A stretch of 42,679 nucleotides of DNA from an uncultured Butyricicoccus sp. (GTDB lineage Bacteria; Bacillota; Clostridia; Oscillospirales; Butyricicoccaceae). A model generated the notes under the pieces. That model was not told the DNA's origin and did no database searches. It saw nothing but the letters and a program-made list of their open reading frames with translations. Shown here in pieces: positions 22,867 through 41,949 of the stretch. The stretch is taken from positions 1 to 42,679 of the forward strand of contig UQVU01000003.1 of assembly GCA_900544475.1 (NCBI GenBank), in the 5' to 3' direction. Position 1 is the first letter of the stretch, and the number at the start of each line of letters is the position of its first letter. Position numbers and translations under genes: made by a program.

Positions 22867-22877
22867 AGGAGTAAACT

Positions 22878-23857: not shown

Positions 23858-23886
23858 TTGCTATCAGGGCGGATTACGAGTATAAT
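23858..23886 (+). promoter_or_regulatory. Promoter of the glycolytic cluster (pgk)
   Basis: TTGCTA (23858-23863), a 17-base spacer and a perfect TATAAT (23881-23886). The -10 lies within the left arm of an 11-bp perfect inverted repeat (23882-23892 with 23941-23951). The leader is about 100 bases. Confidence 0.75.
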
Positions 23887-23951
23887 TTGGTATTGGAAAC
23901 GGAATTCTTTGTATAAGAAAGATTTCGTTATTTGGAAGATTACCAAATTAT
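23882..23951. promoter_or_regulatory. Candidate operator pair: 11-bp inverted repeat at the pgk promoter
   Basis: ATAATTTGGTA (23882-23892) and its exact reverse complement TACCAAATTAT (23941-23951) are 48 bases apart. One arm overlaps the -10 and the other lies in the leader. This could be a two-site operator for a glycolytic repressor. No such regulator gene is in the window. Confidence 0.45.
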
Positions 23952-23992
23952 CAGCTGTATTACAGACTTTTCATTAAGGAGAGGGATATACT

Positions 23993-25195: not shown

Positions 25196-25202
25196 AAAAC
25201 GC

Positions 25203-25237
25203 TTTATACCGGGGCGTATCCTCATGCCCCGTATAAA
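25203..25237 (+). other. pgk-tpiA intercistronic hairpin
   Basis: TTTATAC-C-GGGGC pairs with GCCCC-GTATAAA (12 bp with a single bulged C) around a 10-base loop. No T run follows on the plus strand, so it is more likely an mRNA-stabilising or partial-termination hairpin than a full terminator. Confidence 0.55.
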
Positions 25238-25300
25238 TACATAAAGGATAAGGACGAACACGAGAAAATCGTCTGAATTTTTGAAAGGGGTATATCCATA

Positions 25301-26071: not shown

Positions 26072-26141
26072 TTTCACAGCTTCCCGCTTTTGCGGCGGAG
26101 CTGAAATCGCGGTAACGGGATGTCCTCCCGCGCTGATCGCG

Positions 26142-26182
26142 AAAAGGGGGACAGCGACAGGTATCGTTGTCCCCTTTTGTCC
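26142..26182 (+). terminator. Terminator-like hairpin between tpiA and gpmI
   Basis: AAAAGGGGGACAGCGA (26142-26157) pairs with TCGTTGTCCCCTTTT (26164-26178), allowing one G-T pair and one bulged G, and ends in TTTTG. It may end part of the tpiA transcripts. gpmI, 32 bases further on, has no other obvious promoter in between, so read-through is likely. Confidence 0.55.
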
Positions 26183-26213
26183 GTTTTCGCTTCTGAAAAG
26201 GAGTTTTACAAGA

Positions 26214-27965
26214 ATGATGAAAAAGACCACCGCGCCGGAAACCGCCAAGGCAGCCGAAAAGGCTGTTCCGGTAAACGTTCTGGCTGACCCGGTCGTCGTC
26301 AAGGTCGAGGAGCCTGCAAAGCCGAAGCGCGGCCGCAAGCCCAAGGCCGCAGCGGAAGGCGAAGCAAAGCCGGCCGCAAAGCGCACCCACAAGACGACGG
26401 CTGAGAAAAAGACCACCACCCGCAAGACTGCTGCCAAGAAGGCGGAAGGCCCGAAGAAGCCGACCGCGCTCATCATCATGGACGGCTTCGGCCACCGTGA
26501 CGAGAAGAAGGGCAACGCAATCCTTGCGGCAAACACCCCGAACCTCGACAAGATCTTTTCCGAGAACCCGCTGACCTATATCGGCGCATCAGGCCTCGAT
26601 GTCGGTCTGCCGGACGGCCAGATGGGCAACTCCGAGGTAGGCCACACCAACATCGGTGCGGGCCGCATCGTATATCAGGAACTGACCCGCATCACCAAGG
26701 CGATTCAGGACGGCGATTTCTTCGAGAACCCGGCTCTGATGAGCGCCATCAACCAGTGCAAGTGGTTCGGTTCCACCCTGCATATCTTCGGTCTGCTGTC
26801 TGACGGCGGCGTCCACTCGCACATTGACCATATGTTCGCGCTGCTCGAGCTGGCGCGCCGCAACGGTCTGCGCAAGGTATGCTTCCACTGCTTCATGGAC
26901 GGCCGCGACACGCCCCCGCAGTCCGGTATCGAGTATATCGACCGCCTGCAGGCGAAGATCGACGCCGTTGAAGTCGGCTGCATCGCAACCGTATCCGGCC
27001 GCTACTACGCAATGGACCGCGACAACCGCTGGGACCGCGTAGAGAAGGCATACAACGCCATCGCACTCGGCGAGGGCGAGCACGCAGCGACGGCGCACGA
27101 GGCAATGGAGAAGTCCTATGCCAATGGCGTCACCGACGAGTTCGTTGTTCCGGTTATCGTAACCGAGGGCGCGACCGTCAAGGACGATGACGCGATCATC
27201 TTCGCAAACTTCCGCCCCGACCGTGCACGCGAGATCACCCGTGCCTTCGTCGATCCGGAGTTCACCGGCTTTGAGCGCGTTCAGCCGAAGATTCACTATG
27301 TCTGCATGACGCAGTATGATGCGACCATCCCGGGCGTTGAAATCGCGTTCAAGCCGCAGAGCCTCAAGAACACCTTCGGCGAGTATATCTCCGACCTGGG
27401 CATGACCCAGCTGCGCATTGCCGAGACCGAGAAGTACGCACACGTTACGTTCTTCTTCAACGGCGGCGTAGAGAAGGAGTACCCGGGCGAGGATCGCGCA
27501 CTTATCCCGTCCCCCAAGGTTGCGACCTACGACCTCCAGCCGGAGATGAGCGAACCGGCCGTTACCGAGGAGTGCGTCAAGCGCATCCTTTCCGGCAAGT
27601 ATGACGTTGTTATCCTGAACTTCGCGAACTGCGACATGGTCGGCCACACCGGCGTATTCGAGGCAGCCGTAAAGGCGATCGAAGCGACCGACGACGGCGT
27701 AGGCAAGGTCGTAGACGCGATTCTCAAGATGAATGGTCAGTGCCTGATCACGGCTGACCACGGCAACGTTGACCAGATGCTCGACGCAGACGGCGTCACC
27801 CCGTTCACCGCGCACTCCACCAACCCCGTACCGCTCGTTATGGTCGGTCACGAGGGCAAGCTGGCAGACGGCGGCGTTCTGGCTGACCTTGCTCCCACCA
27901 TGCTCGACATGATGGGCATTCCGCAGCCGGAAGAGATGACCGGTCATTCTCTGCTCACCAAGTGA
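26214..27965 (+). CDS. gpmI: 2,3-bisphosphoglycerate-independent phosphoglycerate mutase with basic N-terminal tail
   Basis: It converts 3-phosphoglycerate to 2-phosphoglycerate through a phosphoserine and two Mn ions. The catalytic part begins at about residue 83 (ALIIMDGFG with metal ligand D90) and has the nucleophile S140 in QMGNSEVGHTNIGAG; the remaining metal ligands are in the C-terminal ADHGNVDQM stretch. The whole protein is 583 aa, about 75 longer than usual. The excess is an N-terminal tail of about 82 residues, rich in Lys, Ala, Thr and Pro. It contains PKRGRKPK (37-44), an AT-hook-like motif, and histone-H1-like KTAAKK repeats. No ATG, GTG or TTG restart is visible in frame between the first two codons and the catalytic core, and AAAAGGAG precedes ATG 26214, so the tail is probably translated. 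Its role is unknown; nucleic-acid binding is plausible. Confidence 0.95.
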   Translation: MMKKTTAPETAKAAEKAVPVNVLADPVVVKVEEPAKPKRGRKPKAAAEGEAKPAAKRTHKTTAEKKTTTRKTAAKKAEGPKKPTALIIMDGFGHRDEKKGNAILAANTPNLDKIFSENPLTYIGASGLDVGLPDGQMGNSEVGHTNIGAGRIVYQELTRITKAIQDGDFFENPALMSAINQCKWFGSTLHIFGLLSDGGVHSHIDHMFALLELARRNGLRKVCFHCFMDGRDTPPQSGIEYIDRLQAKIDAVEVGCIATVSGRYYAMDRDNRWDRVEKAYNAIALGEGEHAATAHEAMEKSYANGVTDEFVVPVIVTEGATVKDDDAIIFANFRPDRAREITRAFVDPEFTGFERVQPKIHYVCMTQYDATIPGVEIAFKPQSLKNTFGEYISDLGMTQLRIAETEKYAHVTFFFNGGVEKEYPGEDRALIPSPKVATYDLQPEMSEPAVTEECVKRILSGKYDVVILNFANCDMVGHTGVFEAAVKAIEATDDGVGKVVDAILKMNGQCLITADHGNVDQMLDADGVTPFTAHSTNPVPLVMVGHEGKLADGGVLADLAPTMLDMMGIPQPEEMTGHSLLTK

Positions 27966-28085
27966 GCCTCCAAGGGGGGACTCTGTCCCCCTTAGATACC
28001 GAAAAAGTTCCCAAGGAAACTTTTTCGGATAACCCGCGCCGCGTGCGCGGCGCAGCAAAAATGCAGCTTACGGCATTTCTGCTGT
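27966..28085. repeat. Hairpin cluster between gpmI and eno
   Basis: Four successive inverted repeats: AAGGGGG/CCCCCTT (27972-27993), CCGAAAAAGTT/AACTTTTTCGG (27999-28028, 11-bp perfect stem), GCGCCGCG/CGCGGCGC (28036-28053) and an imperfect CAGCAAAAATGC/GCATTTCTGCTG (28053-28084). None has a good T run. They probably shape the eno leader or the 3' end of gpmI. The second hairpin resembles 9133-9156 downstream of guaB. Confidence 0.55.
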
Positions 28086-28089
28086 TTGA

Positions 28090-29448
<1,359 letters not shown>

Positions 29449-29817: not shown

Positions 29818-29852
29818 CAAAACACCCCTCCACGGTTCGCTGTGGAGGGGTG
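29818..29852 (-). terminator. Intrinsic terminator of the phage-like cassette
   Basis: Read on the minus strand, an 11-bp perfect stem (CACCCCTCCAC / GTGGAGGGGTG, 29823-29833 with 29842-29852) is followed by TTTTG. It lies 40 bases past the last minus-strand gene. Confidence 0.8.
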
Positions 29853-29891
29853 GTCTATTTTAGCCCGCAATAGCCGAAGCGCGTCCCGCTC

Positions 29892-30869
29892 TCAGTTCCG
29901 GTAGCCGGCCTTCCATTTCTGGAGGGCGAGGCTGGCGTTTTTGTAGCTGACGTCGGCGGTCGGTGTTCCGGCGGGCACACCGAGCACGGCGGCGTCGCCC
30001 TTCTGGACGTAGCCGGTGGTTTTCCACCGCGCAAGCGCACGCTCGTAGGCTTCGGCCTCGGTGGCGGTGCGCAGCTTTGCGAGCGCATTGCTCTGCTCAG
30101 CGCGGGCGGCGGCGGCGCTCAGCTCGTAATTTCGGTAGGAAAGCGTTGGAACGCCGTCGATAAAGCCGGTCAGACCCGCCATGGACAGGCTGTAATCGCG
30201 CTCGGCGTTGTACTGGTTCAGCAGTGTCTGCGCCTGCGACATGGCGGCGTTTTCCGCCGCACCGGCGTAGCTGTTTTCCGCGTCCGCTTCACTCGCTGCC
30301 GCCGCGCTTTCCGCCGATGCACGGGCGGTGAGCCGGGTCTGCGCGAGGGAGGCAAGGTCGCCGCGGTACTGATTGTCCACCGCGATGCGGCTGGTTTCGG
30401 CAGCGCCGCTCGTGGCCGCACCGGTTTTCGCGCCCATGTTCAGGCCGAGCAGCGCGAGCTTTTCCTCGTTGCGCAGCGCGGACTGACGGGCGCTGATGTC
30501 CGCCTGACGCACCGCCGCGGCGTAATCGCTGTCAATCGAGCTGAGATTGGACGAAAGCTGCTGACGGATGCGTGTGCGGGCGGCCTCGAAGCGCTGAAGC
30601 CGCGCCTTTTCCGCCGCGTCGTAGAGCGAGCTGACGCGCTCGGCGTTTTCGCTGGCGGCTTTGGAGGCGGAGGACGAGGACGCGACGTAATACGGGCGGT
30701 AGCTGCTCGTCCAGGTCGAAACCGCGCTGTTGTCCGCGACCTTGCCGGTCAGGCCCTCGGCGTCGATTTTGTTCTGCCGTTCGGCAAGCAGCCGGTCGCG
30801 CTCGGCCTTGCTCGTCGAGTTCGCAATCGCCTCGGAATAGTCGAAATTGTCACGATAATTCTTTGCCAT
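29892..30869 (-). CDS. Ala-rich helical phage protein, possible internal virion/ejection protein
   Basis: A 325-aa protein that I place by context rather than homology. It is rich in Ala, Ser, Glu and Arg with long predicted helices through about residues 70-270. Its N-terminal third is polar (DNFDYSEAIANSTSKAERDRLL) and its C-terminus is more compact (ARWKTTGYVQKGDAAVLGVPAG). In P22-like order, small Ala-rich ejection proteins are encoded after the tail-hub genes, which is where this gene lies. GAAAGGAG precedes its ATG. It is the last gene before the cassette terminator, so no tailspike, fibre or lysis gene follows. Confidence 0.6.
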   Translation of the reverse strand: MAKNYRDNFDYSEAIANSTSKAERDRLLAERQNKIDAEGLTGKVADNSAVSTWTSSYRPYYVASSSSASKAASENAERVSSLYDAAEKARLQRFEAARTRIRQQLSSNLSSIDSDYAAAVRQADISARQSALRNEEKLALLGLNMGAKTGAATSGAAETSRIAVDNQYRGDLASLAQTRLTARASAESAAAASEADAENSYAGAAENAAMSQAQTLLNQYNAERDYSLSMAGLTGFIDGVPTLSYRNYELSAAAARAEQSNALAKLRTATEAEAYERALARWKTTGYVQKGDAAVLGVPAGTPTADVSYKNASLALQKWKAGYRN

Positions 30870-30881
30870 ATCTTACTCCTT

Positions 30882-32693
30882 TCAAATCGAGCCGCCCTCG
30901 GTCCATCGCAGCGTCAGCGCAAGCAGGCCGAACGGCTCTCCGGCGCGGTCGTTCCCGATGCGCAGCGTGTGGAGCGGACGGCGGTAGCGGCGGCGGTGAC
31001 TGCGCCAGCTGACCGCGCCCGGCACGCAGCGGAAGGAAACGCGCCCGAAATCCCAGTTTCCGAAGGAAAACAGGTCAAGACTGCGCGAAAGCCGCTGTGT
31101 TTCGCCGCCCTCGTCCGTGAAGCAGAGCTCGGCGCTCGACCGCGCATAGGGCATGAGGGTCGGGATCACGTCGCGGATGGTCTTGTTGCGGCTCCAGTCC
31201 GAGAGCGAAAGCGTCGGCGTGCACCAGTAGGCGTCGATGGCCGCGCCGTCATCGGTGTAGGCGTCCGCCTCGTCCGGCAGGGAAAAGCGGCACAGCCGTC
31301 CGTCCGCCGTGCCGAACCACAGCCGGTCGTCCAGCACCGCAAGGCACTGCGCGGGCACGTTCGCCCAGAAAAACCACGCCGGAAACCCGTCCTCCTCGGT
31401 GAGATGGCTGTCTGCGATGTAGACGTTTCCGTTCAGGGCGAGGTAGTACCGCCCCTCAAACACCGCCGCGCACGCCTTTTCGAGGGCGGTTTCGCGGATA
31501 AGCCGCGGACAGACGGCCTCGGAAATCGGGCGGATGGTGTTCTGCTCCGCGACCGCCGTGCCGTAAACGCCCATCACGCCCTGCGCAGAGAGAAAGAGCG
31601 GCAGGTCTCCGAGCATCGCGAACGAGCGCGGCGCGACTGCGCCCTCGCCGTGTGCGCCCTGCCGCAGCGAAAAGTAGGAAGCGCCGTCGTCGGTCATGAC
31701 AAAGGTGCGCGCGAAGCTCGTTGCCTCCTGTGCGCCGCCGGTCTTGACGATGATCTGGCTCTCGTACTGCTTGAGATATCCGGCAATCGCGCTCGCTTCC
31801 GTGCCCATGCGTGCGTAGCCGGTGTCGGGGAAGTAGCTCGGGTCGTAAAGTCCGCTCTGCCAGTCGCAGTGCGGCTCGTCCGGGTTGCCCGCGAGAAAAA
31901 CGCGCGTGTCGTTCTTGCCGCCGTACAGCCCAGCGATGCGGCAGCGGTTGATTTTCGCCGCTGCGCCCGGAACGGTCTTGCTGAACGCGATGCTCACGTT
32001 GTCGTGACCCTGCCCGTCGGGCGGCGCGGAGGCGAGCGCGACACGCCCCTTGTCGTAATCGACTGACGCGATAGCGACCTCCGCACCGTTTACCGCCGCC
32101 GTCAGCGGAATGCGGTCGAGGCCCGCCGCGTCCAGACGGAACTCCGTGCTTTTGCCGTCGCCGATAAAGGTGTTGATGCGCCGTCCGGTCAGGAGGTTTA
32201 CCGCCTCCAGGCTCGTGCCGCCGCCCGCAGGAGACGCGGAAACCGTGGTCGTCGGCACATAGGCGCTGTCCTGCACGCGCTCGGCTGTCCACGCGCCCCC
32301 GTTTCTGCGCACCGCACGGAAGCACGCGCCGTCAAGCAGATACAGCACGCCGTTCATCGTAAACGCCTGTGAAAACGCGCCGTTCATGCTGCTGCAAAGA
32401 AGCGACTGCGTGCCGCTTGCGGGGCGGAAGTACAGATTGACGCCCGCGTGGACGAACGCGCCCTCGCCGTCCGGGGCAGGAAACACGCCGTAAACCGGCG
32501 CATCGTAGCGCTCGACGGTTTTCCAGCCGGTGCGCTTGACGAGAAAATCGTTCCGGTCGCAGACGAGGTTCTGTAAATCGGGTGAGCGTGTCAGCGTCAC
32601 CTTGGTCGGGTGGGAACGGAAATCCGCGCCGCCGAAGCGGCTGATGACGGTCTGGTGCTCGGTTTTCACCGAGGGAAAGTGATAGCTTCGCAT
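30882..32693 (-). CDS. Phage head-tail hub / DNA-stabilisation-like protein
   Basis: A 603-aa protein of mostly beta-strand character with recurrent short blocks (for example VYGVFPAPDGEGAFVHAG and CLAVLDDRLWFGTADGRL), suggesting a propeller-like fold. In size and position (after the short connector) it corresponds to the P22 gp10 tail hub, which helps close the portal and keep DNA in the head. That assignment rests on gene order plus general character, since I cannot compute a fold. Its ATG overlaps the stop of the preceding gene by one base (TGATG), so the pair is coupled. The reading frame is intact. Confidence 0.55.
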   Translation of the reverse strand: MRSYHFPSVKTEHQTVISRFGGADFRSHPTKVTLTRSPDLQNLVCDRNDFLVKRTGWKTVERYDAPVYGVFPAPDGEGAFVHAGVNLYFRPASGTQSLLCSSMNGAFSQAFTMNGVLYLLDGACFRAVRRNGGAWTAERVQDSAYVPTTTVSASPAGGGTSLEAVNLLTGRRINTFIGDGKSTEFRLDAAGLDRIPLTAAVNGAEVAIASVDYDKGRVALASAPPDGQGHDNVSIAFSKTVPGAAAKINRCRIAGLYGGKNDTRVFLAGNPDEPHCDWQSGLYDPSYFPDTGYARMGTEASAIAGYLKQYESQIIVKTGGAQEATSFARTFVMTDDGASYFSLRQGAHGEGAVAPRSFAMLGDLPLFLSAQGVMGVYGTAVAEQNTIRPISEAVCPRLIRETALEKACAAVFEGRYYLALNGNVYIADSHLTEEDGFPAWFFWANVPAQCLAVLDDRLWFGTADGRLCRFSLPDEADAYTDDGAAIDAYWCTPTLSLSDWSRNKTIRDVIPTLMPYARSSAELCFTDEGGETQRLSRSLDLFSFGNWDFGRVSFRCVPGAVSWRSHRRRYRRPLHTLRIGNDRAGEPFGLLALTLRWTEGGSI

Positions 32694-33061
32694 CAGATCA
32701 TCTCCTGTACGGCGGTGAACTGCGCCGGGCAGTGCAGCAGCAGACGTTCGGCGTATTCGCTTGCCGCGCGGTTGAACATGGCCTTGTCATCGTCCGCGCA
32801 GAGCAGCGCCGCAAGGCCGTAGGGAAAACATTCGCGCACGAGCCATTCGGGCGCCGGTACGTCCTCGTCGAGCGAGTTCATGCACGGCGGCACGGAAAAG
32901 GCGGCCTCGCCCTGCTGGACGCGCTCCGCGTTGATTTCGCGCAGGCTGTTCGCGAGCAGCTGATTGAGCGCGCCAAGGGCGAACTGCGCGTAATATTCGC
33001 CGCTGTCCGCGCCCGCGCCAAGCACCACGAGCGATGCGCGGTAACATTCGTTTCCGGTCAT
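32693..33061 (-). CDS. Putative phage head-tail connector protein
   Basis: A 122-aa mainly helical protein (YYAQFALGALNQLLANSLREIN; FPYGLAALLCADDDKAMFNRAASEYAERLL). Size, composition and place between the capsid gene and the hub-like gene fit a head-completion adaptor of the P22 gp4 / gp6-like type, which attaches below the portal. GAAAGGGG precedes the ATG. It is translationally coupled to the next gene. It is separated from the capsid gene by a repeat element of about 130 bp. Confidence 0.5.
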   Translation of the reverse strand: MTGNECYRASLVVLGAGADSGEYYAQFALGALNQLLANSLREINAERVQQGEAAFSVPPCMNSLDEDVPAPEWLVRECFPYGLAALLCADDDKAMFNRAASEYAERLLLHCPAQFTAVQEMI

Positions 33062-33090
33062 AAAAACAAACCCCTTTCGTTTTAGCGTTA

Positions 33091-33224
33091 AGAGAGGAGA
33101 GCATATAGGAGAGTGAAGAGTGAAGAGAGGAGAGTGGAGAGGAGGTATCGCCTGCGGCGATGATTAAATTGTGCGCTTTGCGCACACCGCAACTCCACTC
33201 TGAATTCTCAACTCTTCACTCTTT
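33091..33224. repeat. GAGTGAAGAG-bordered intergenic repeat, copy 1
   Basis: The borders are purine-rich repeats of GAGTGAAGAG type on the left and their complement (CTCTTCACTC-like) on the right. The core GAGGAGGTATCGCCTGCGGC, followed by GATGA and then TGTGCGC...GCGCACACCG, reappears in reverse orientation at 41960-42064. It fills the gap between the capsid and connector genes. It looks like a dispersed non-coding palindromic repeat of the host, so its presence implies the cassette has been in this genome for some time. Confidence 0.7.
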
Positions 33225-33227
33225 TCG

Positions 33228-34259
33228 TTAGCCTTCTGCTACGGCGGACGGGAACTTGCCGGTTTCCGTCATGTACGCGCGGATCTTGCAGCCGCTTTCG
33301 GCGGTCAGCACGGCATTCGCGGTGTAATCCTTCGCGGAGTCGGAGTAGCGCGGGTCGGAGCCGTCGAGCGTGTAGCGGATGCTGCCCGAACCGGTGATCT
33401 TGCCGCCGGAAATGACCGGCTTCGCGGAAACCAGACCGGTCGCAACGAGCGCATACACGCCGCCGCACTTCGCGCCGAGAACGTAGGCGTCGTAGTAGTG
33501 GCGGCCCTCAATGAGCGCGCCGGACACGCCGACCGGGTCCTCGTGCACCTTTGCGTCCGCAATCTTGTACGGCATGAGCACGGCGTCCTTGTGCGCGACG
33601 AGGAAGTAAACGCCCTCCGGCAGGTAGCTTTTCGGCACGCGCACGACGTTCATGCCGAACACCTCGCCGCACACGCCCTTCGCGATGGACTGACGCGCGA
33701 GCACATCGACGCCGGAAAACTCGTCCGAGGTGCACACGAGCTTGTACATTTCGCTCGTCAGGTACAGATAGCGGTTGTCGTCCGGCACGAGCGCGTCATC
33801 GAGCGCCTGCGAAGCGTCAGCGATCTTGCTGATGATGTCGGCGCGGGTCGGCTTTGCGCTTTCGGCAATCGTGCCGGCCATGGTGACGAAGCGGCGGAAA
33901 GCGTACTTGTCGGCTGCCGGGGTGGACTTCTCGCTCAGCTGGAGGCGCAGCATATCGGCGGCGTTCTTGACGAGGTTCTGGTCGAGGTTGTTGCCCTTGT
34001 CGATGGTCAGGGTGAACGCCTTGTCCTGCGTCATGGTCAGCTCCTGCACGACGTCCTGCATTTCGGTGACAGCGCCGTAGCGGCCCAGACCGCCGTCGCG
34101 GTCGTAATCGACCTCCTCGACCGTAATCGGGGTGTAGACCTTGAGCGTCTTGACGCCGGTCAGGTCAAAGGTTTCGGCGGTCTTGCCCTTGATGAAGGAC
34201 GAGCGGGTAAAGACTTCCGCAATCTGGTCGGAATACTTGCTTGCGAGATTGATAGCCAT
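33228..34259 (-). CDS. Major capsid protein with C-terminal chitobiase-like domain
   Basis: A 343-aa protein in the capsid position after portal and scaffold genes. Residues 1-280 look like an HK97-fold coat protein: a helical N-arm (NLASKYSDQIAEVFTRSSFIKG), an extended beta region (VKTLKVYTPITVEEVDYDR) and a central P-domain-like stretch (YLYLTSEMYKLVCTSDEF). Residues 281-343 add a small module with YTLDGSDPRYS (296-306) and IRAYMTETGKFPS, the signature of chitobiase/hexosaminidase C-terminal (CHB_HEX-type) Ig-like domains. Such domains decorate the surface of some capsids. AAAAGGAG precedes the ATG. The frame is intact, with no sign of decay. Confidence 0.75.
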   Translation of the reverse strand: MAINLASKYSDQIAEVFTRSSFIKGKTAETFDLTGVKTLKVYTPITVEEVDYDRDGGLGRYGAVTEMQDVVQELTMTQDKAFTLTIDKGNNLDQNLVKNAADMLRLQLSEKSTPAADKYAFRRFVTMAGTIAESAKPTRADIISKIADASQALDDALVPDDNRYLYLTSEMYKLVCTSDEFSGVDVLARQSIAKGVCGEVFGMNVVRVPKSYLPEGVYFLVAHKDAVLMPYKIADAKVHEDPVGVSGALIEGRHYYDAYVLGAKCGGVYALVATGLVSAKPVISGGKITGSGSIRYTLDGSDPRYSDSAKDYTANAVLTAESGCKIRAYMTETGKFPSAVAEG

Positions 34260-34307
34260 AAGATAAAGTCTCCTTTTATAAATCGGTGGTGGATGTTCAG
34301 CGGCCTG

Positions 34308-34787
34308 TTATCTGCCGAGCAGCGCGAGTGCAACCGGGTCGATGCCGGTGGGTTCGCCGTCGGTCTGGGCGGTGCCGACAGCGGCGCGGCGGTTCTTACG
34401 GTTCATTTCGAGCGCCGCCAGCTCGTCGCGCAGCTCCGCGATTTCCCACTTGCGGTAAGCGGACACGAGCGAGCCCTCCTGCTGCGCCCATTCCCAGACC
34501 TGCTGCGGAATATCCTCGGGGCGGACGTCCGGGTATTCCTCGACGAACGCGGCGTAGATCTGGCCGTTCGGCAGGGCGTTCGCCGCGCGGTTGCGGCGCA
34601 CGTAAGCGTTGCGCTTGGAAAGACCCTCGGCCGCCGCCTCCATCAGCTCCGCAAGCGTCAGCTCGTGTACCTCACCGTCCGCCTCGACCGGATAGGTGGT
34701 CTCGGACGCCGTTTCGGGCGCTTCCGCCGCCGCAAACGGGTCGAGCGGGCGGTTTTCCTCGGGATTACGGTTCATCGGGTTGTGCAT
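34308..34787 (-). CDS. Putative phage scaffolding protein
   Basis: A 159-aa acidic, helix-rich protein (for example DGEVHELTLAELMEAAAEGLSKRN and WEIAELRDELAALEMNRKNRRAA) with a disordered Pro/Glu-rich N-terminus and a basic patch late in the chain. This is the usual make-up of a capsid-assembly scaffold, and its place directly before the major capsid gene supports that. I chose ATG 34787, which has GGAGGAAG 8 bases upstream; the open frame extends 12 codons further. It overlaps the end of the portal gene by 23 bases. Confidence 0.6.
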   Translation of the reverse strand: MHNPMNRNPEENRPLDPFAAAEAPETASETTYPVEADGEVHELTLAELMEAAAEGLSKRNAYVRRNRAANALPNGQIYAAFVEEYPDVRPEDIPQQVWEWAQQEGSLVSAYRKWEIAELRDELAALEMNRKNRRAAVGTAQTDGEPTGIDPVALALLGR

Positions 34788-36321
34788 TTTTCGCTTCCTC
34801 CTTCTGTGTCTGTCGCTGCACACGGAGCGCGTGCAGCAGGTCGTGTTTGCCGCGCACCTGATAATCAGGCACGTTCTCGAGATAAACGAGCGGGTCGGAG
34901 ATGACGCCGCTTTCGAGCAGGTGGTCGTTCGTGGTGGTCTGCATGATTTCTGACCAGTAGCTTGCCGCGCCGATGTCCACCTGAAGATTCATGTCCTGCC
35001 CCGCGAGGGACGAGAAATCGAAGCTCTGCTTTTGCGGCTCGCCGCCGTCCTCGTCGGGCAGAACAAGCGTGCGCACGCCGTAGTGCACGCCCATCATGTC
35101 GAGAAAGATACGCGCCCAGTCCTCGGTGAAACGGTAGAACTCCATTTTCGTCAGTTCAAGCGGGGCGGCGGTCGCGCTCTGCACCGCGATAATGGCCGAG
35201 GTGTTGTCCGGGTGCACCGTGCCGAGCGACGCCTCGCTCGCGCCCATCAGCTCGGTCGTGTCGCGCATCATCTGCTGGAGCAGCTGAAGCACCTGCGCGG
35301 AAATATCCGGCACGCGGAACGCCGCCGCGATGGCCTCGTTCGGGTTGCCGCGCATGCCGATGGCCTTGCCGACGTCGTTCGACCAGCCGTTCGGGAAACG
35401 GGTCATGTCGTAGACGATCTTCGGGAACGCGACCTGCTTGATGCACTGCACGTACATGGAATACAGCTTGTTGATGGCGATCTGGTTGGGGATGGCCTCG
35501 GTCAGCGGACTTTCGCCGTGGCACGAGCCGCGCACGCGGTTCCAGCACAGATGCGTCACCGGATACAGCCGGTAGGGGAGCACCTTTTCGCGCATGACGG
35601 TAGCGCTGCGCGTGGTCTTGCAGAACGCGATGCCGCCCTCGACGCGGCGCATATGCAGCAGCACGGTCACGCGCCCGTCCTCACGGTTGGCGCGGTATCG
35701 CAGGTATTCGCCGCTGTCGTCCGCGCGGATTGCCTCGATTTCGTCATCGGACACGCCGTTTTCCCTTGCCTCGCGCCGCACCTCATCGACGTCGCGCCGC
35801 ATGGCGATGATGATGTACGGCTGGCGCTGCACCTCGTCGCAGGCCGGGTTGCCGAAGCAGATGTTTACCGAGTCGATGAGATCGACCGAAATATCGCCCT
35901 TGACGGCCTGACCGGTTTCGAGCGCCGGGTCGAAGTGCATATAGAAGCAGGCGTCGCCGTCCACGCAGGCGTTTTTGAGCAGCGGTCTGCCGAGCGCCTT
36001 GACGCCCGAGCGTTCGATGGCGGAAGCGAAGGCGCGTTCGAGCACCTTTGCGGTGCGGCGGCCGTTTTCGTCCATGTCGAACGGCGTGACGCGCACCGCC
36101 ACATCGTCTGACACGAGCATCGCCACGAACAGATTGACGCAGCGGCGCAGCACGTTGAAGATCAGCGGGTCGAGCGACTGCACGCGCAGGCCCTCCCACT
36201 GCCGGCCGAGGTAGAACGCCTCGTTGCGGCGCACGCGGTCGTACAGACCGATGGAGCGCTTGTAGTCGCGGTCGCGCTCATATCTGCGCCAGACTTCCGC
36301 CGGTGTGCGGTCAAACTGCAT
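34765..36321 (-). CDS. Phage portal protein
   Basis: A 518-aa portal, the dodecameric ring at one capsid vertex through which terminase packages DNA. Portal features are the N-terminal region RRNEAFYLGRQWEG with NVLRRCVNLFVAML, a wing and stem (GDISVDLIDSVNICFGNP; GESPLTEAIPNQIAINKLYS), and a C-terminal helical part (LQLLQQMMRDTTELMGASEASLG followed by TSAIIAVQSATAAPLELTKM). The type is that of podovirus/P22-related portals. GGAGGAGG lies 11 bases before ATG 36321, and the start overlaps the small membrane-protein gene by 11 bases. Intact. Confidence 0.87.
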   Translation of the reverse strand: MQFDRTPAEVWRRYERDRDYKRSIGLYDRVRRNEAFYLGRQWEGLRVQSLDPLIFNVLRRCVNLFVAMLVSDDVAVRVTPFDMDENGRRTAKVLERAFASAIERSGVKALGRPLLKNACVDGDACFYMHFDPALETGQAVKGDISVDLIDSVNICFGNPACDEVQRQPYIIIAMRRDVDEVRREARENGVSDDEIEAIRADDSGEYLRYRANREDGRVTVLLHMRRVEGGIAFCKTTRSATVMREKVLPYRLYPVTHLCWNRVRGSCHGESPLTEAIPNQIAINKLYSMYVQCIKQVAFPKIVYDMTRFPNGWSNDVGKAIGMRGNPNEAIAAAFRVPDISAQVLQLLQQMMRDTTELMGASEASLGTVHPDNTSAIIAVQSATAAPLELTKMEFYRFTEDWARIFLDMMGVHYGVRTLVLPDEDGGEPQKQSFDFSSLAGQDMNLQVDIGAASYWSEIMQTTTNDHLLESGVISDPLVYLENVPDYQVRGKHDLLHALRVQRQTQKEEAKNAQPDEP

Positions 36322-36505
36322 TATCTTCGTCCTCCTCCCGGCCGTAGGCCATCAGCGCCGCAATATCGCGGCTGAGCGTATCGTCTGCGGCGGTTTCCGC
36401 TGTGTTTTCGCGCGGCACGCCCTTCGGCAGCGTCACGCCGCCCGAAATGACCGCGCCCGTCAGCACCAGAACCGCCGCCGACAAAGCGTAACAAATGATT
36501 TCCAT
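36311..36505 (-). CDS. 64-aa single-span membrane protein between terL and portal
   Basis: A short protein with one N-terminal hydrophobic helix (MEIICYALSAAVLVLTGAVI, residues 1-20, with the segment running to about residue 24), followed by a polar, acidic cytosolic or lumenal tail (DDTLSRDIAALMAYGREEDED). The credible start is ATG 36505 with GGAGAGG 5-6 bases upstream; the frame stays open to 36634, but that overlaps terL without a ribosome site. Its end overlaps the portal start by 11 bases, so it is translated with the portal. The function is unknown. It could be a holin-like or membrane-anchoring protein, but the position is not where holins usually lie. Confidence 0.65.
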   Translation of the reverse strand: MEIICYALSAAVLVLTGAVISGGVTLPKGVPRENTAETAADDTLSRDIAALMAYGREEDEDNAV

Positions 36506-36551
36506 AGTAGCCTCTCCTTTGCAGATTTGTAAATCGTTTTCCCGTAGGCCG

Positions 36552-37850
36552 CTAATAGCTGAGAAACTCTCCCACCTCGCAGTCATACGCGGTCGGGCGG
36601 CTGTCGGACGGCGGCTCGCGTACGGTAGCGGCATACCCTCGCAGCGCGTCCGGCGCGTGCGTCAGCTCATGCGGCGTGTTCGCCGTGTCGGACGGATTGC
36701 GCGTGTCGTGCTGCAAGGCCGGGAGCGTGCGGATGAGGTTGCGGCACGAGCTGAAAATGGTCAGCCGCGGCCGCATTTCGCCGTCCGTATCCCGTCGCGG
36801 CGTGAGCAGCTCGTGCAGCGCCAGCCAGCCGGCCACGCGCTCGTTGCTCGACTTTTCGAAGTCGAGTCCGCAGTCCGCGAACAGCTGCACCGCGCTTTTG
36901 CCGGTTTCCTGCCGCCGGTTCCACAAATCGGGCGGCGCGAGCCGCACATCGATGTGCTCGCCGGACGCCTCGCTCGAAAGGATACGCGCGGCGGCCTCGG
37001 AGATAATCAAACCGGGTTCATATAACTCTCTGTATACTACGCTGCGCCCGTCCGGACTCTGCGCGATCCAGAGCGCCGCGAGCATATCCAGACCGTAATC
37101 AATGGTCAGATACCTTCGCCAGCCGTCCGGTATCTCGTGCGGCGGAACCACGTGCAGGGCAGGGGAGAACTCGGAAAAATACCGTCCCTCGTCCAGCTCC
37201 CACACGCCGTCGAGCAGCGCCCGCCTGTCGTGCACCGAGAGCAGCCGCAGCCGCTTTTCGTACCCGGCGTCCGCCCGGCGGAGAAACGGGTTGTCCGTGA
37301 GCCTTGCGGGCAGGAACAGCCGCGTTTCCCCGTCGAACTCGTGCATCTCGTCCGGCGGCATCGGGTCGATGAAGCGGCTTTTGACCCACTGATGCCCGAT
37401 ACCGCCCGGATTGGTGGTCGCCTTGACCTGCTTCGGGTAGGAATTTGCGCCGCGGATGCGCGAAAGCAGATAGGTGAACTGGCTTTCGGTGAAATGCGTC
37501 AGCTCATCGAACCGTATCACGTCGTATTCCGCGCTCTGGTACTTTGTGACGTCGCTTTCCGCGTCGCAGTAGCCGAATTCGAGCGAGGAGCCGTTGATGA
37601 ATGCCCATCGGTGCTCGCTGACCTTGTAGGCCGCGACAGACTGCGGATACAGCCGCAGAGCCGCAGGAACGAGCGAACGCTCCAGCTCGGGCATGGTGCG
37701 CCGCAGCATCAGCTGACGCGAACCGGGATACACGACCGCGAACCGCAGCGCATCGAGCAGCTGACCGTGGCTTTTGCCGCCGCCGGCCGCGCCGCCGAAC
37801 AGCGTTTCGAACGCCTTCGACCGCATGAACGCCGCCTGTCTGGGCGTCAC
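36552..37850 (-). CDS. terL: Phage terminase large subunit
   Basis: The ATP-driven DNA-packaging motor and headful/cos nuclease. The 432-aa protein has Walker A GGAAGGGKS (19-27), Walker B YDVIRFDE (109-116) with catalytic glutamate E116, the coupling motif ATTNPGG (144-150), and an RNase-H-like nuclease with D251 (LTIDYGLD) and the late acidic motif THAPDALRGY. All motor and nuclease motifs are present, so it could be active. It starts with GTG, overlapping the small-subunit stop as GTGA. No integrase is nearby. Confidence 0.93.
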   Translation of the reverse strand: MTPRQAAFMRSKAFETLFGGAAGGGKSHGQLLDALRFAVVYPGSRQLMLRRTMPELERSLVPAALRLYPQSVAAYKVSEHRWAFINGSSLEFGYCDAESDVTKYQSAEYDVIRFDELTHFTESQFTYLLSRIRGANSYPKQVKATTNPGGIGHQWVKSRFIDPMPPDEMHEFDGETRLFLPARLTDNPFLRRADAGYEKRLRLLSVHDRRALLDGVWELDEGRYFSEFSPALHVVPPHEIPDGWRRYLTIDYGLDMLAALWIAQSPDGRSVVYRELYEPGLIISEAAARILSSEASGEHIDVRLAPPDLWNRRQETGKSAVQLFADCGLDFEKSSNERVAGWLALHELLTPRRDTDGEMRPRLTIFSSCRNLIRTLPALQHDTRNPSDTANTPHELTHAPDALRGYAATVREPPSDSRPTAYDCEVGEFLSY

Positions 37851-38056
37851 CTCGAATTCGTATCTTCGTCCGCTATGCGGAACACGATTTCCACCGGCGC
37901 TCTGTCCTGCGCCTGCTCGAGCATCACTCCCTTGCCGACCGTCCGGTCGAGAATTTCCTTGATCGCGCTGAGCCGGCTGTTCGCCGGGGCCTCCACATCG
38001 TCCGCGATGTCGTACAGCATCCGGATCAGTTCGTCCGGATTGCTTTTTCTCTGCAC
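37847..38056 (-). CDS. Putative phage terminase small subunit (short)
   Basis: A 69-aa protein at the head of the cassette. It is helical (PDELIRMLYDIADDVEA; SRLSAIKEILDRTVGK), and the middle resembles the HTH/oligomerisation part of small terminase subunits, but it is shorter than most. The function comes mainly from its place before terL and the 4-base overlap. It starts with GTG 38056, with AAGGAGG about 10 bases upstream. It is the first gene downstream of the SOS-boxed promoter. A short transcription regulator is an alternative. Confidence 0.55.
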   Translation of the reverse strand: MQRKSNPDELIRMLYDIADDVEAPANSRLSAIKEILDRTVGKGVMLEQAQDRAPVEIVFRIADEDTNSR

Positions 38057-38130
38057 AATCGCCTCGCCTCCTTGCAGAATGGTTTCAGAAGGCTTCCGGT
38101 CTGCCGTTCCGGCGTCCCTCTGTGAGCCAT

Positions 38131-38159
38131 AGAATAGGACGGGAACGCCGACTTGTCAA
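38131..38159 (-). promoter_or_regulatory. Promoter of the phage-like cassette
   Basis: On the minus strand, a perfect TTGACA (38159-38154), a 17-base spacer and TATTCT (38136-38131). The leader to the small terminase gene is about 70 bases. The LexA box directly abuts the -35. Confidence 0.85.
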
Positions 38160-38172
38160 GAACAAATGTTCG
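38159..38172 (-). promoter_or_regulatory. LexA (SOS) box at the cassette promoter
   Basis: CGAACATTTGTTCT on the minus strand matches the Gram-positive LexA/DinR consensus CGAAC-N4-GTTCG at nine of ten defined positions. It ends on the base where the -35 TTGACA begins, so bound LexA would block RNA polymerase, and cleavage during DNA damage would turn the cassette on. Confidence 0.8.
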
Positions 38173-38415: not shown

Positions 38416-39270
38416 ATGAATAAAATCAAACTGATTGCGCTCGACCTTGACGGAACCGCGCTCACGCCGCAGAACAAGGTGGCCGAGTCCACGACCGCAG
38501 CGGTGCGCCGGGCCCGCGCGGCAGGCGTGTACGTTGTTGTATCGACCGGCCGCATCTGCGGCGAGGCACGCGATTTCGCCATCGACCTCGACGCGGACGA
38601 TCTGATGGTAACGTCCGGCGGCGCGACGCTTTCGAGCATTTCGGGCGAGGGCTGCACCATGCGCATGTCCATGCCGTGGGAGGCGGCGGTCCGCGCGGCG
38701 GCGGCGGTCGAGCGCATCGGCATGATCGCCATGATCTACGTCGGCGAAACGCTGCTCATCACGCCCTATGACGACCTCGGCTTCGGCAGCTACAAGACCA
38801 ACGAGGGTTATCTGACCTCGAAAAAGGTGGTCCCGTCGGTCGCTGAGTATATCGCTGACCATCATCTCTCGGTCGATAAGATCTTCGTGCGCAGCCGCGA
38901 CGCGGTCACGCTCAGCCGCACCCGCGCCATTCTGGAGACCATTCCGGGCGTGCGCGTCATGAGCTCGGCGGCGGACAACCTTGAGGTCATCACCCCGGCG
39001 GCGGACAAGGGCAACGCGCTCGGCATGCTGTGCCGCGACATCGGCACCGACCTCGACCACGCGGCCGCCATCGGCGACAGCGAAAACGATTTCGAAATGC
39101 TGCGTGCAGTCGCGCTCCCCATCGCCATGGGCAACGCATCGGACGAGGTAAAGGCGCTCTGCCGCTGGGAAACCGACAGCAACGCCGAGGACGGCGTCGC
39201 CCACGCCATCGACCGCATCCTCGCGCACAATAAAGCGTGTGACGAGCAGGCGGAAAACAGTGGAATTTGA
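38416..39270 (+). CDS. Cof-type HAD phosphatase (YidA-like)
   Basis: A 284-aa soluble HAD hydrolase of the Cof subfamily (class IIB), typically sugar-phosphate or cofactor phosphatases. Motif I is ALDLDGTAL with nucleophile D10, motif II is STGR, and motif IV is GDSENDFEML near the C-terminus. The long insert between them is the C2 cap. ATG 38416 has AAAGGGGAAAGG upstream; the frame is open 33 codons further, into the promoter region, which is not credible. The substrate is unknown. The stop codon lies within a TTGACA element before ftsK. Confidence 0.92.
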   Translation: MNKIKLIALDLDGTALTPQNKVAESTTAAVRRARAAGVYVVVSTGRICGEARDFAIDLDADDLMVTSGGATLSSISGEGCTMRMSMPWEAAVRAAAAVERIGMIAMIYVGETLLITPYDDLGFGSYKTNEGYLTSKKVVPSVAEYIADHHLSVDKIFVRSRDAVTLSRTRAILETIPGVRVMSSAADNLEVITPAADKGNALGMLCRDIGTDLDHAAAIGDSENDFEMLRAVALPIAMGNASDEVKALCRWETDSNAEDGVAHAIDRILAHNKACDEQAENSGI

Positions 39271-39330: not shown

Positions 39331-41949
39331 TTGGCTGCAAGAAAAACCACAAAACCAAAATCGGAAAAAAGCGCACCCCGCACGCGCAAAAAGGCGGAGC
39401 CTGCACCTGAAATACAGGAGAGCGAGGGTCTGAGCCGCATGGCGTGGGGCGCGATCTGGGCGGGACTGGGTGTCCTCGCCCTTCTTACGCTGCTGCCGAT
39501 CGACGGCGCGCTGCTGCGCTGGCTGCACCGCTTTGTCGGCGGTATGATCGGCCGGGGCGCACTGCTGCTGCCAGTGGCGTTTTTCGCGCTGGCGGCGCTG
39601 CTTTTCCTGCGTCCCAAGGGACCGGTACGCCTGCGCGGCGCGTGCATCGGCATCACGCCCGTCCTCTTCGGCGGCATCGTCCACGCCATCACCTGCGCAA
39701 ACGAGTACGATTTTTCTATGAAAACCATACGGAACCTACTGGAAACCGGAATGGAGAACCATTCGGGCGGTCTGCTCTCGGGCATGCTGTACATCGTGCT
39801 CGAATGGGCGCTGTCGAGCGCCGGCGCACTCATCGTGCTGCTGCTGCTCATGGTGGCCGCCATCATGGTAGCCTGCCGCATCACGCCAATGATGCTCGTC
39901 GATATGTTCCGTCCGCCTGAGTACGAATACGAGGACGAGGAGGAACGCGCCCGCTACGAGGAGCCGGTGCAGCTGCCGAACGTGCATGAAATGGCGCGTG
40001 AGATCACGGCGGCGCACGCCCAGAAGCGCGAGGAGCGCCGGGCACGCCGTCAGGCGTCCGACTTCGACATTCCAATCGATAACGACCCGCCCGGCGAGGA
40101 TAAGCCCGGCGGCGCTATCCCGCCCGTCTATCCGCCGCACGAGGAGGGCAAGCCGCTCGCGCCCGATGAATACCTGCGGGGCCTGAAAAAGCCGCGCGAG
40201 GAGAAGCGGGAAGAACAGCCGGACAGCATCATGGACCTCGTTGCGAACCGCGCCGACGAGCCGGAGGATGAACCCGAAGTCGAGGCGGCGCCTGCTGAGC
40301 CTGCAAAACCGGCATCCAAGCCGAAAAAGAACGAAAGCATCTCGGAGGACGAGCAGGCGGCGATGAACGACGCGATGGACGAGAGCCAGAAGGCGCCCGC
40401 GCCGGTCTACGCTTATCCGCCGCTCGACCTGCTCACGCAGGGAAAGCACGCATCGGTCGCCGGTGCGGAGGCCGAGCTGCGCGAAAGCTCGGCATGCCTG
40501 CTCGATACGCTTGAGTCGTTCAACATCGATGCGCAGATCATCGGCATCGTGCGCGGCCCGTCCGTCACCCGCTTCGAGCTGACCATTCCGCGCGGCATCA
40601 AGATTTCGCGCGTTTCCGCACTTGCGGACGATATTGCACTCGCGCTCGGCGCGGCGAACGTGCGCATCGCGCCCATCCCGGATAAATCCGCGGTCGGCAT
40701 CGAGGTGCCGAACAAGACGGTCAACACGGTCTTTATCCGCGAGTGTATCGGCTCGCCGGCCTTTGCAAACGCGAAGAGCCGCCTGTCCTTCGCCGTCGGC
40801 AAGGACATCACCGGCAGACCGGTCATCGGTGACATTGCGAAAATGCCGCACATGCTGATTGCAGGTACGACCGGTTCCGGTAAGTCGGTCTGCATCAACT
40901 CCATGCTGATCTCGCTGCTCTACAAATCGACCCCGGAGGAGGTCCGCCTCATCATGGTAGACCCGAAGATGGTCGAGCTTGGCAATTACAACGGCATTCC
41001 GCACCTGCTCATTCCGGTCGTCACCGACCCGAAGAAGGCCGCCGGAGCGCTCAACTGGGCGGTCGGCGAGATGGAGCGCCGCTACAAGCTGTTCGCGGAC
41101 CATCAGGTGCGCAACCTTGTCGGCTATAACGACCTCATGCGTGCGGAAAAGGCGAAGGCCGAGGCCGCCGCAGCGGGTGAAACCGAGGGCGAAACCACGG
41201 GCGTAGCCGCAGTCCCCGAGCAGTATCAGGTGCTCCCGCAGATCGTTATCGTTATCGACGAGCTGGCCGACCTCATGATGGTCGCGGCGAAGGAAGTCGA
41301 AAACTCGATCTGCCGTATCGCGCAGAAGGCGCGTGCCGCCGGTATGCACCTTGTCGTTGCGACCCAGCGTCCGTCCTCTGACGTCATCACCGGCATCATG
41401 AAGGCGAACATTCCCTCGCGCATCGCGTTCGCGGTCGCGAGCCAGATCGAGTCGCGCATCATTCTCGATACCACAGGCGCGGAAAAGCTGATCGGCAAGG
41501 GCGATATGCTCTATGCGCCGCTCGGCGAGGGCAAGCCGCTGCGCGTGCAGGGCTGCTTCATCTCGAACGAAGAAATCGAGAGCGTCATTGAAAAAATCAA
41601 GGAAACGAGCACCGCCGAGTACAGCGAGGAAATCCTCGAGCACATCGAGCGTCAGGCTGAGCAGGAGGACAGCAAGAGCGGCGGCTCCTCGGGCGGCGAC
41701 CCCGGCGAGGACGAGGACGAAATGATCGAGGAAGCGATCGACGTTATCATGGAATGCCGTCAGGCGTCCACCTCCATGCTCCAGCGCCGCTTGAAGCTCG
41801 GCTATTCGCGTGCCGCCCGCATCATCGACCAGATCGAGGAGCGCGGCATCATCGGCCCGTTCGAAGGCTCCAAACCGCGCCAGATACTCATTTCGCGTGA
41901 GGAATGGCAGGAGATGAAGCTCCGGCGCAATATGCCGCTGGACAGATAA
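39331..41949 (+). CDS. ftsK: DNA translocase FtsK/SpoIIIE
   Basis: It pumps chromosomal DNA across the closing division septum (and into the forespore in spore-formers). The 872-aa protein begins with TTG 39331, with TAGGAGAG upstream. Residues about 30-190 hold four membrane helices. A low-complexity acidic/Pro linker covers about 195-360. The motor then carries Walker [10 protein letters not shown] (about 511-519), Walker [11 protein letters not shown] and the arginine-rich [12 protein letters not shown]. The C-terminal winged-helix gamma domain ([20 protein letters not shown]) reads KOPS/SRS sites. All domains are present. It lies between a HAD gene and a dispersed repeat. Confidence 0.97.

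What the first reader, a model, noticed from the sequence alone, without database searches (positions are those of the whole stretch)
29818..38172. SOS-controlled, integrase-less P22-like packaging and capsid cassette
Nine intact minus-strand genes are arranged as small terminase, large terminase, membrane protein, portal, scaffold, capsid, connector, hub-like and ejection-like protein, in about 8.2 kb. They have one consensus promoter, a LexA box and one terminator. Integrase, repressor, replication, lysis, tail-fibre and tailspike genes are absent, yet every terminase motor and nuclease motif is kept and overlaps such as GTGA and TGATG are tight. Decay would be expected to leave frameshifts. 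The set could build a DNA-filled head without host-recognition parts, as in a satellite helped by another phage, or a domesticated gene-transfer-type particle. The gene content is seen directly; the role is inference.
Basis: partly seen in the sequence, partly recalled or inferred. Interest (0 to 1): 0.87.

Follow-up and report, generated by a model that had tools for sequence, protein, structure and literature searches.

The report
Domesticated phage head genes in Agathobaculum
A gut bacterium of the genus Agathobaculum carries an intact, inherited set of nine phage head and DNA-packaging genes behind a DNA-damage switch, and in many relatives a matching attachment fibre lies elsewhere, beside the cell's own surface-coat gene; together they look like a gene-transfer particle owned by the cell rather than a decaying virus.

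Summary
The nine-gene block is real and intact. 23 of 25 genomes of the genus carry its capsid; it lies beside ftsK in 19 of 19 loci read, and all nine genes are open in 16 of 16 loci not cut by a contig end. dN/dS resembles that of neighbouring ftsK; cassette and host distances agree (Mantel r 0.89). Terminases of Agathobaculum, Intestinibacillus and a third Butyricicoccaceae group form one clade. No integrase or att repeat was seen. The small terminase (69 aa) lacks the usual DNA-binding part. A LexA box sits on the promoter (12 of 19 perfect, 7 with one mismatch) and, shifted, in Intestinibacillus; lexA has such a box. Best reading: an SOS-controlled, podovirus-derived, gene-transfer-agent-type particle, like FpGTA of Faecalibacterium (Nat Commun 2026). 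The fibre that phages encode after the nozzle gene is not in the cassette; fibre-domain genes occur elsewhere in many cassette genomes and in 0 of 32 nozzle-less ones, and 24 of 27 examined in Agathobaculum/Intestinibacillus face an S-layer gene convergently. Packaging, transfer and fibre use are inferred. The window's genome was not held; its nearest relative shows no fibre.

The parts
38160..38171 (-). LexA box GAACATTTGTTC, abutting the -35
   Evidence: conserved at -276 to -313 from TerL in relatives; lexA itself boxed
38131..38159 (-). sigma-70-type promoter TTGACA-17-TATTCT of the operon
   Evidence: aligned with 19 Agathobaculum-type and 2 Intestinibacillus loci
37847..38056 (-). small terminase, 69 aa, without the usual DNA-binding part
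   Evidence: PHROG 10899 positions 208-260 of 443; compared by eye with TerS of relatives
36552..37850 (-). large terminase
36311..36505 (-). small membrane-like ORF (64 aa)
   Evidence: no family match (searched as 36311-36634); kept in relatives
34765..36321 (-). portal
   Evidence: PF16510 P22_portal, phrog_156
34308..34787 (-). putative scaffold
   Evidence: position; conserved in relatives
33228..34259 (-). major capsid protein with C-terminal Fn3_assoc domain
   Evidence: phrog_422, PF13287; 23 of 25 genus genomes at 87% identity or more
32693..33061 (-). 122-aa protein, likely head-tail adaptor (by position)
   Evidence: between capsid and nozzle; 122 aa in all 16 complete Agathobaculum-type loci; no PDB or family match
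30882..32693 (-). tail nozzle/hub (P22 gp10 / T7 gp12 fold)
   Evidence: model pLDDT 88; Foldseek hits to podoviral tail complexes E 4e-18 to 5e-11; profile hit to tail tubular protein B, 7e-5
29892..30869 (-). 325-aa helical protein, found only in the Butyricicoccaceae cassettes among the 163 loci searched
29823..29852 (-). stem-loop terminator (pattern on either strand)
28132..29448 (+). flanking host gene: enolase (start approximate)
38416..39270 (+). flanking host gene: Cof-type HAD hydrolase (divergent)
39331..41949 (+). flanking host gene: FtsK

Best explanation
The block is the head-and-packaging operon of a domesticated, podovirus-derived, gene-transfer-agent-type particle. Proposed working: DNA damage activates RecA, LexA leaves the box at the -35, and one transcript makes terminase, portal, scaffold, capsid, adaptor, nozzle and a helical protein. 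The small terminase lacks the DNA-recognition part, so the motor fills heads with host DNA without choosing a site. Adaptor and nozzle close the head. In many relatives the receptor-binding fibre is supplied from another locus: its N-terminal domain is that of the fibre which related phages encode directly after the nozzle gene, and its tip-coding end lies next to the variable end of an S-layer gene. Release needs lysis functions not found here. Shown by sequence: genes, intactness, purifying selection, vertical inheritance, LexA box, short TerS, nozzle fold, the fibre-cassette association in relatives. Inferred: random packaging, release, delivery, and use of these fibres by this particle.
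For: Genus-wide: capsid at 87% identity or more in 23 of 25 genomes; nozzle in family genomes at 64% or more in 23, 55-58% in 3, 46-50% in 11, of 87. Same place: ftsK beside it in 19 of 19 Agathobaculum-type loci; in Intestinibacillus and L018 a DUF4914 gene lies on the far side, and G006/G007, which lack the cassette, keep DUF4914 (88%), HAD and ftsK together. Intact: 16 of 16 loci not cut by a contig end. dN/dS medians 0.10-0.24 for the seven larger genes against 0.16 for ftsK. Congruence: 7 of 13 splits shared, shuffles mean 0.16, maximum 3; Mantel r 0.89, 0 of 2000. TerL of the three groups is one side of a branch among 114 rows (SH-aLRT 99, quick tree). LexA box at the promoter; lexA boxed in 4 of 4 Agathobaculum genomes examined; the same box recurs at genes that look like rarA and a Y-family polymerase (by eye). 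TerS 69-71 aa against 143-196 aa, apparently HTH-bearing, in several phage-like relatives. Nozzle fold. Fibre domain: 35 of 55 genomes with a nozzle gene, 0 of 32 without, Fisher 3e-10. A published particle of this sort in Faecalibacterium packages 8.4-8.9 kb of host DNA (PMC12946183).
Against: No particle, packaged DNA or transfer has been seen for any of these bacteria. 7 of 19 Agathobaculum-type loci (one clade) have a box with one mismatch, and the third group has no LexA box. recA, a usual LexA target, has no perfect box in the five genomes examined (one-mismatch sites in two), and the Intestinibacillus lexA none within one mismatch. GAACNNNNGTTC as such is no commoner than its control genome-wide. 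Short TerS also occurs in more distant loci (L035-L039, L097). Eno follows in only 12 of 16 complete loci. One moderately supported tree conflict (L014/L032). Two copies outside the genus are interrupted: L021 (where ftsK is interrupted too) and third-group L029, whose capsid stops after 82 residues with no later cassette gene. No lysis operon was found. A. butyriciproducens (G002) has S-layer genes but no fibre. Homology with FpGTA I could not be tested.
Confidence: 0.7

Rival explanations
1. A killing particle (PBSX-like): SOS-induced heads fill with host DNA but act as a bacteriocin aimed at kin or rivals through the variable fibres, without delivering genes.
For: Same anatomy. Variable fibre tips beside variable S-layer genes fit warfare with self-protection as well as kin targeting. 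PMC12946183 itself leaves a PBSX-like role open for FpGTA.
Against: Portal, terminase and capsid are all under purifying selection, which a head-less killer would not need; but PBSX keeps its head too (recalled).
Confidence: 0.16
2. A vertically fixed remnant whose products serve some other structural or SOS-linked role, or are near neutral on this time scale.
For: No activity has been shown. TerS and the 64-aa ORF evolve fast (dN/dS 0.33 and 0.43); L029 and L021 are interrupted; 2 of 25 genus genomes lack it.
Against: Intact reading frames in 16 of 16 complete Agathobaculum-type loci, dN/dS 0.10-0.24 in the seven larger genes, conserved order, promoter and LexA box over two genera.
Confidence: 0.08
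3. A helper-dependent satellite (capsid-forming PICI-like) that borrows tails from another phage.
For: Own capsid and terminase, no fibre in the cassette.
Against: No integrase, repressor or replication gene in the block; longest exact direct repeat between its immediate flanks 10 bp (shuffles up to 12). Vertical, same-place inheritance. Has its own nozzle.
Confidence: 0.03
4. An ordinary defective prophage on its way to decay.
For: Integrase, repressor, replication, lysis and fibre genes are missing from the block.
Against: Genus-wide synteny, intactness, selection and congruence with the host.
Confidence: 0.03

Closest known systems
FpGTA of Faecalibacterium (Borodovich et al., Nat Commun 2026, PMC12946183; abstract, sections 9, 10, 26 and find passages seen)
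   Same: Compact operon with TerS lacking an obvious DNA-binding domain, TerL, portal, scaffold, capsid and further phage-like genes; podovirus-like by the authors; in all twelve Faecalibacterium genomes they examined; fibre and lysis genes in a second locus, not detected in seven strains.
   Different: 8.2 kb and nine genes against 10.5 kb and ten ORFs; other family (Agathobaculum and Butyricicoccus are not named in that text); LexA box on the operon promoter (none reported in the sections read); fibre genes beside S-layer genes; no lysis operon found; no particle seen yet. Sequence homology untested.
RcGTA and CcGTA of Alphaproteobacteria (passages of PMC9632790 and PMC11841831)
   Same: Host-controlled phage-derived clusters; RcGTA TerS appears to lack the DNA-binding domain and CcGTA has no known TerS; CcGTA packages about 8.3 kb.
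   Different: Siphovirus-type tails there (recalled) and other regulators (CcGTA: RogA/GafYZ); here a short-tail nozzle and LexA.
Bacillus phage Page (NC_022764) and podovirus-like contigs
   Same: Homologous nozzle (28% identity to Page_15) and the same N-terminal fibre domain in the next gene (Page_16).
   Different: Page is a phage with lysis and replication genes; here no fibre gene follows the nozzle.
Capsid-forming PICIs (recalled)
   Same: Own capsid and terminase without full tail set.
   Different: Those are integrase-bearing mobile satellites; this is vertical and integrase-less.

Membership tests
Gene transfer agent | phage-derived structural genes kept in the host chromosome by vertical descent | tested here: met
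Gene transfer agent | no integration, replication or repressor genes with it | tested here: met
   nine ORFs only, host genes on both sides; no att-like repeat
Gene transfer agent | small terminase without DNA-binding domain | tested here: met
   69 aa; matches only part of TerS profiles; by sequence and eye only, not by structure
Gene transfer agent | maintained by selection | tested here: met
Gene transfer agent | packages random host DNA, not its own genes | not testable with these tools
   needs particles
Gene transfer agent | delivers DNA to recipients | not testable with these tools
   needs transfer assay
Gene transfer agent | full set of tail/fibre and lysis genes somewhere in the genome | tested here: inconclusive
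   fibre-domain hits in 30 of 37 cassette genomes, one of them only a tip match inside another phage-like locus; no lysis operon found; window's genome not held
FpGTA (Faecalibacterium) | genes homologous to FpGTA I | not testable with these tools
   no Faecalibacterium sequence reached; 16S probe found 0 of 394 order genomes
Capsid-forming PICI / satellite | integrase and att sites | tested here: not met
Active or decaying prophage | integrase, repressor, strain-level presence or pseudogenes in close relatives | tested here: not met
LexA (SOS) regulon | GAAC-N4-GTTC box at the promoter, of the kind found at lexA | tested here: met
   12 of 19 perfect, 7 of 19 one mismatch; binding itself not tested

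The most novel reading that the evidence does not exclude
A split, SOS-triggered gene-transfer particle whose key and lock are inherited together: the fibre gene faces an S-layer gene convergently, so the variable fibre tip and the variable part of the S-layer lie side by side and can be exchanged as one unit, aiming DNA delivery (or killing) by coat type. Support: 24 of 27 fibre genes examined in Agathobaculum/Intestinibacillus have a convergent SLH S-layer gene (23 of them 48-95 bp stop to stop, one 405 bp); within a genome fibre N-termini are 89% and S-layer N-termini 81% identical on average but tips 31% and the S-layer remainder 36% (15 comparisons); tip and S-layer distances correlate (r 0.42; 0.36 after controls; 0 of 5000). 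Against: the fibre N-terminus also correlates with the S-layer remainder (r 0.40; 0.20 after control), so kinship and physical linkage could explain much of it. Two cassette-less genomes of the genus have convergent S-layer pairs with no fibre between.
Probability: 0.36. Interest if true: 0.92.

Novelty: new variant of a known kind. Interest (0 to 1): 0.8.

Why it matters
It would place a gene-transfer-type particle in a second family of gut butyrate producers and, unlike FpGTA as described in the sections read, put the capsid operon directly under LexA, so inducers are known and testable. It gives a candidate genetic source for host-DNA packaging of the kind seen in gut viromes. If the S-layer-linked fibres belong to the particle, it is a natural system in which receptor and receptor-binding protein are linked genes, a direct handle on the open question of who receives GTA DNA.

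Tried and rejected
Prophage remnant and satellite readings were rejected on synteny, intactness, selection and lack of integrase/att. The human faecal 'Bacteriophage sp.' records L001 and L002 were considered as particle evidence and dropped: L001 has a 168-aa TerS unlike the cassette's and 30-46% identity in three proteins, L002 33-45% in two. A Faecalibacterium genome was sought with a recalled 16S probe: 0 of 394, so FpGTA homology stays untested. The LexA-box survey for a separate tail/lysis operon (5 genomes, 7; loci capped at 30 a call) gave genes that look like rarA, YihY/SLOG, a Y-polymerase and a recombinase (by eye) and a SpoIID family protein, but no tail operon; only the SpoIID-like gene could be a lysis candidate and nothing further supports it. 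No LexA box within one mismatch lies in the 300 bp before the Agathobaculum fibre genes examined, apart from one-mismatch sites far upstream in L349 and L354; one Intestinibacillus fibre (L307) has a one-mismatch box at -73. A shared 8-bp element (GTGAGCTG/CAGCTCAC) in third-group cassette (9 of 9 within one mismatch) and fibre (7 of 8) promoters was chosen by eye after seeing the sequences, against a background of 10.7%, so it is only a hint. The 325-aa model matched nothing. Portal and 122-aa protein had no PDB match by sequence. Papers: (gene transfer agent + Agathobaculum) 0 papers; only the listings were seen; PMC12946183 was read in part; PMC9632790 and PMC11841831 were seen as passages.
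Full report
What is there. Nine minus-strand genes at 29892-38056 form one operon with a promoter, a LexA-type box and a terminator, between eno and a divergent HAD gene followed by ftsK. TerL, P22-type portal and capsid are clear by family; TerS is weak; the 122-aa and membrane ORFs are orphans. The 603-aa protein folds as a podoviral nozzle/hub (model pLDDT 88; hits to Pa223, GP4, P22 gp10 and T7 tail complexes, E 4e-18 to 5e-11; profile hit to a tail tubular protein B). The 325-aa last protein is helical, without PDB match at E 0.001, and among 163 loci searched occurs only in Butyricicoccaceae cassettes.

Where else it occurs. A scan of one genome per species kept the best 80 of 413 confirmed candidates. 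19 of these (L004-L020, L032, L034) are Agathobaculum-type loci with TerL at 80-86% identity (L017 and L018 bear other names). FtsK lies beside the cassette in 19 of 19, the HAD gene in 17 of 19; in the 16 loci not cut within the cassette, eno follows in 12, and all nine genes are open in 16 of 16. In the genus of A. massiliense the capsid is present at 87% identity or more in 23 of 25 genomes. Two Intestinibacillus loci and ten loci of a third group (L022-L030, L033) carry relatives: seven third-group loci are complete for TerL to the last gene, L025 and L033 are cut by contig ends, and L029 stops 82 residues into the capsid although the stretch goes on. The Intestinibacillus type-strain copy L021 has interrupted capsid and 325-aa frames; its ftsK is interrupted too, which hints at assembly error. 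A GntR gene flanks six third-group loci (L022, L023, L024, L026, L027, L033), an ABC gene five of these, a Na/H exchanger four (L022, L024, L026, L028). A DUF4914 gene follows the cassette in L018 and in the Intestinibacillus-type loci L021, L031, L304 and L305; G006 and G007, which lack the cassette, have the same gene (88% to L031) next to HAD, with ftsK nearby.

Inheritance and selection. NG86 medians over Agathobaculum pairs with dS under 1: TerL 0.18, portal 0.12, capsid 0.10, 122-aa 0.21, nozzle 0.17, 325-aa 0.24, scaffold 0.22, TerS 0.33, 64-aa 0.43; host HAD 0.15, ftsK 0.16, flavin-type protein 0.13, GpmI 0.08, eno 0.04. Concatenated cassette (seven genes) and ftsK+flavin-type protein trees of 16 rows share 7 of 13 splits (shuffles mean 0.16, maximum 3), Mantel r 0.89 (0 of 2000); one moderately supported conflict concerns L014/L032. 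In a quick TerL tree of 114 rows (34 of the viral rows chosen, the rest left out), Agathobaculum (19), Intestinibacillus (2) and the third group (10) are together one side of a branch (SH-aLRT 99), apart from 83 other rows. The longest exact direct repeat between the immediate flanks is 10 bp, within what shuffles give.

Control. GAACNNNNGTTC or a one-mismatch form lies at the same promoter in 19 of 19 Agathobaculum-type loci: 12 perfect, 7 (one clade) AAACATTTGTTC. In both Intestinibacillus loci L021 and L031 a perfect box lies inside the -35/-10 spacer instead: the site moved, the promoter overlap stayed. lexA has such a box in front in 4 of 4 Agathobaculum genomes examined; the Intestinibacillus lexA showed none within one mismatch, and recA had no perfect box in five genomes. 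GAACNNNNGTTC alone is not enriched genome-wide, but GAACAWNTGTTC is rare (1-6 sites a strand per genome), and over 12 genomes such sites recur at cassette/HAD (8-9 loci), SpoIID-like (7), rarA-like (6), YihY/SLOG-like (6), Y-polymerase-like and recombinase-like genes (names by eye except SpoIID). The third group has no LexA box.

Packaging. TerS is 69-71 aa in Agathobaculum. Several phage-like relatives have 143-196 aa TerS frames with an apparent helix-turn-helix (by eye), but some other loci also have short TerS. The review PMC11841831 (passages) says that RcGTA TerS appears to lack this domain and ties its loss to non-specific packaging.

The fibre. In phage Page, L040, L041, L047 and L050 the gene right after the nozzle carries a shared N-terminal fibre domain. 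Searching 11 genomes with the L040 fibre and then 87 family genomes with an Agathobaculum fibre found small proteins with this domain and variable tips, 24 kb or more from the cassette or on another contig in the cassette genomes. By genome: 35 of 87; 35 of 55 with a nozzle gene, 0 of 32 without (Fisher 3e-10); 30 of 37 cassette genomes against 5 of 50 others (1e-11). One of the 30 (G026) matched only by a tip inside another phage-like locus (L355). The 5 others have more distant nozzle genes, and in three (G027, G048, G051) the fibre lies next to the nozzle. Of the fibre genes, 27 in Agathobaculum/Intestinibacillus regions that I fetched were examined (further hits in G004, G009, G047 and G052 were not): 24 face an SLH S-layer gene convergently (23 at 48-95 bp, one at 405 bp), two more end 46 and 69 bp from a long frame cut by the stretch or contig edge that may be an S-layer gene, one (G005) has none. 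In the third group 8 of 8 examined (11 genomes had hits, each on another contig than the cassette) have no S-layer partner; two are only 94 aa. Of 7 fibre-less cassette genomes, 6 have no long match to this S-layer protein in their assemblies, and one (A. butyriciproducens, nearest to the window) has S-layers but no fibre. Cassette-less G006 and G007 have three convergent S-layer pairs 97-103 bp apart without fibres. Tip and S-layer variation correlate, but so, less after control, does the fibre N-terminus, so linkage and kinship may suffice.

Comparison with print. PMC12946183 (abstract, sections 9, 10, 26) describes FpGTA in Faecalibacterium: a 10.5 kb operon with TerS lacking an obvious DNA-binding domain, about 40 nm particles with 8.4-8.9 kb host DNA, and a second locus with tail and lysis genes. 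Agathobaculum and Butyricicoccus do not occur in its text. The listings of searches showed no paper on such a particle in this family or on S-layer-linked fibres; subscription journals and preprints were not searched.

Verdict. A domesticated, SOS-controlled podovirus-derived particle operon, best filed as a new variant of the gene-transfer-agent kind at the level of 'works like'; membership in FpGTA is untested, and packaging and transfer are unproven.

Noticed in passing
L299:3937-12594, L298:4949-9390, L296, L297, L300, L303, L346-L354: Separate fibre genes with variable tips lie convergent to S-layer (SLH) genes; in A. massiliense three such loci hold divergent fibre pairs with 97-100% identical N-terminal domains.
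   Followed up: yes
L037, L039 (after a YchF-like GTPase), L040 (after accDA-like genes), L043 (after transketolase-like genes): More distant terminase/portal/capsid clusters also sit directly beside genes that look like housekeeping genes (by eye), so other integrase-less cassettes of this kind may exist across Oscillospirales.
   Followed up: partly
L183:4985-5968, L165, L173, L246, L248, L259, L270: A SpoIID-like wall hydrolase gene carries the same GAACATTTGTTC box in seven genomes; a possible release factor.
   Followed up: partly
L022-L033 upstream of terS; L338-L345 upstream of fibre genes: Third-group cassette and fibre promoters share a TATTAT-type -10 and an 8-bp element GTGAGCTG/CAGCTCAC (post hoc).
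   Followed up: partly
L029:9989-13864: A third-group cassette stops 82 residues into the capsid gene and no later cassette gene follows; decay or misassembly.
   Followed up: partly
window:33240-33389: The capsid protein has a C-terminal Fn3_assoc/chitobiase-like domain, perhaps a surface decoration.
   Followed up: no
L347:6003-6602: A gene that looks like a serine recombinase (by eye) directly precedes a fibre gene in G014, which might rearrange fibre tips.
   Followed up: no
L053, L054: Phage-like contigs of 40,887 and 40,886 bases are binned in Methanobrevibacter and Methanosphaera MAGs, probably contamination.
   Followed up: no
window:258-7326 and 20541-29448: Flanks are ordinary host genes: AddB/AddA, inorganic pyrophosphatase, DegV, PGK, TPI, GpmI, enolase.
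   Followed up: yes
window:7445-10651: A 1068-aa minus-strand frame between AddA and a MATE transporter matches no NCBIfam model.
   Followed up: no
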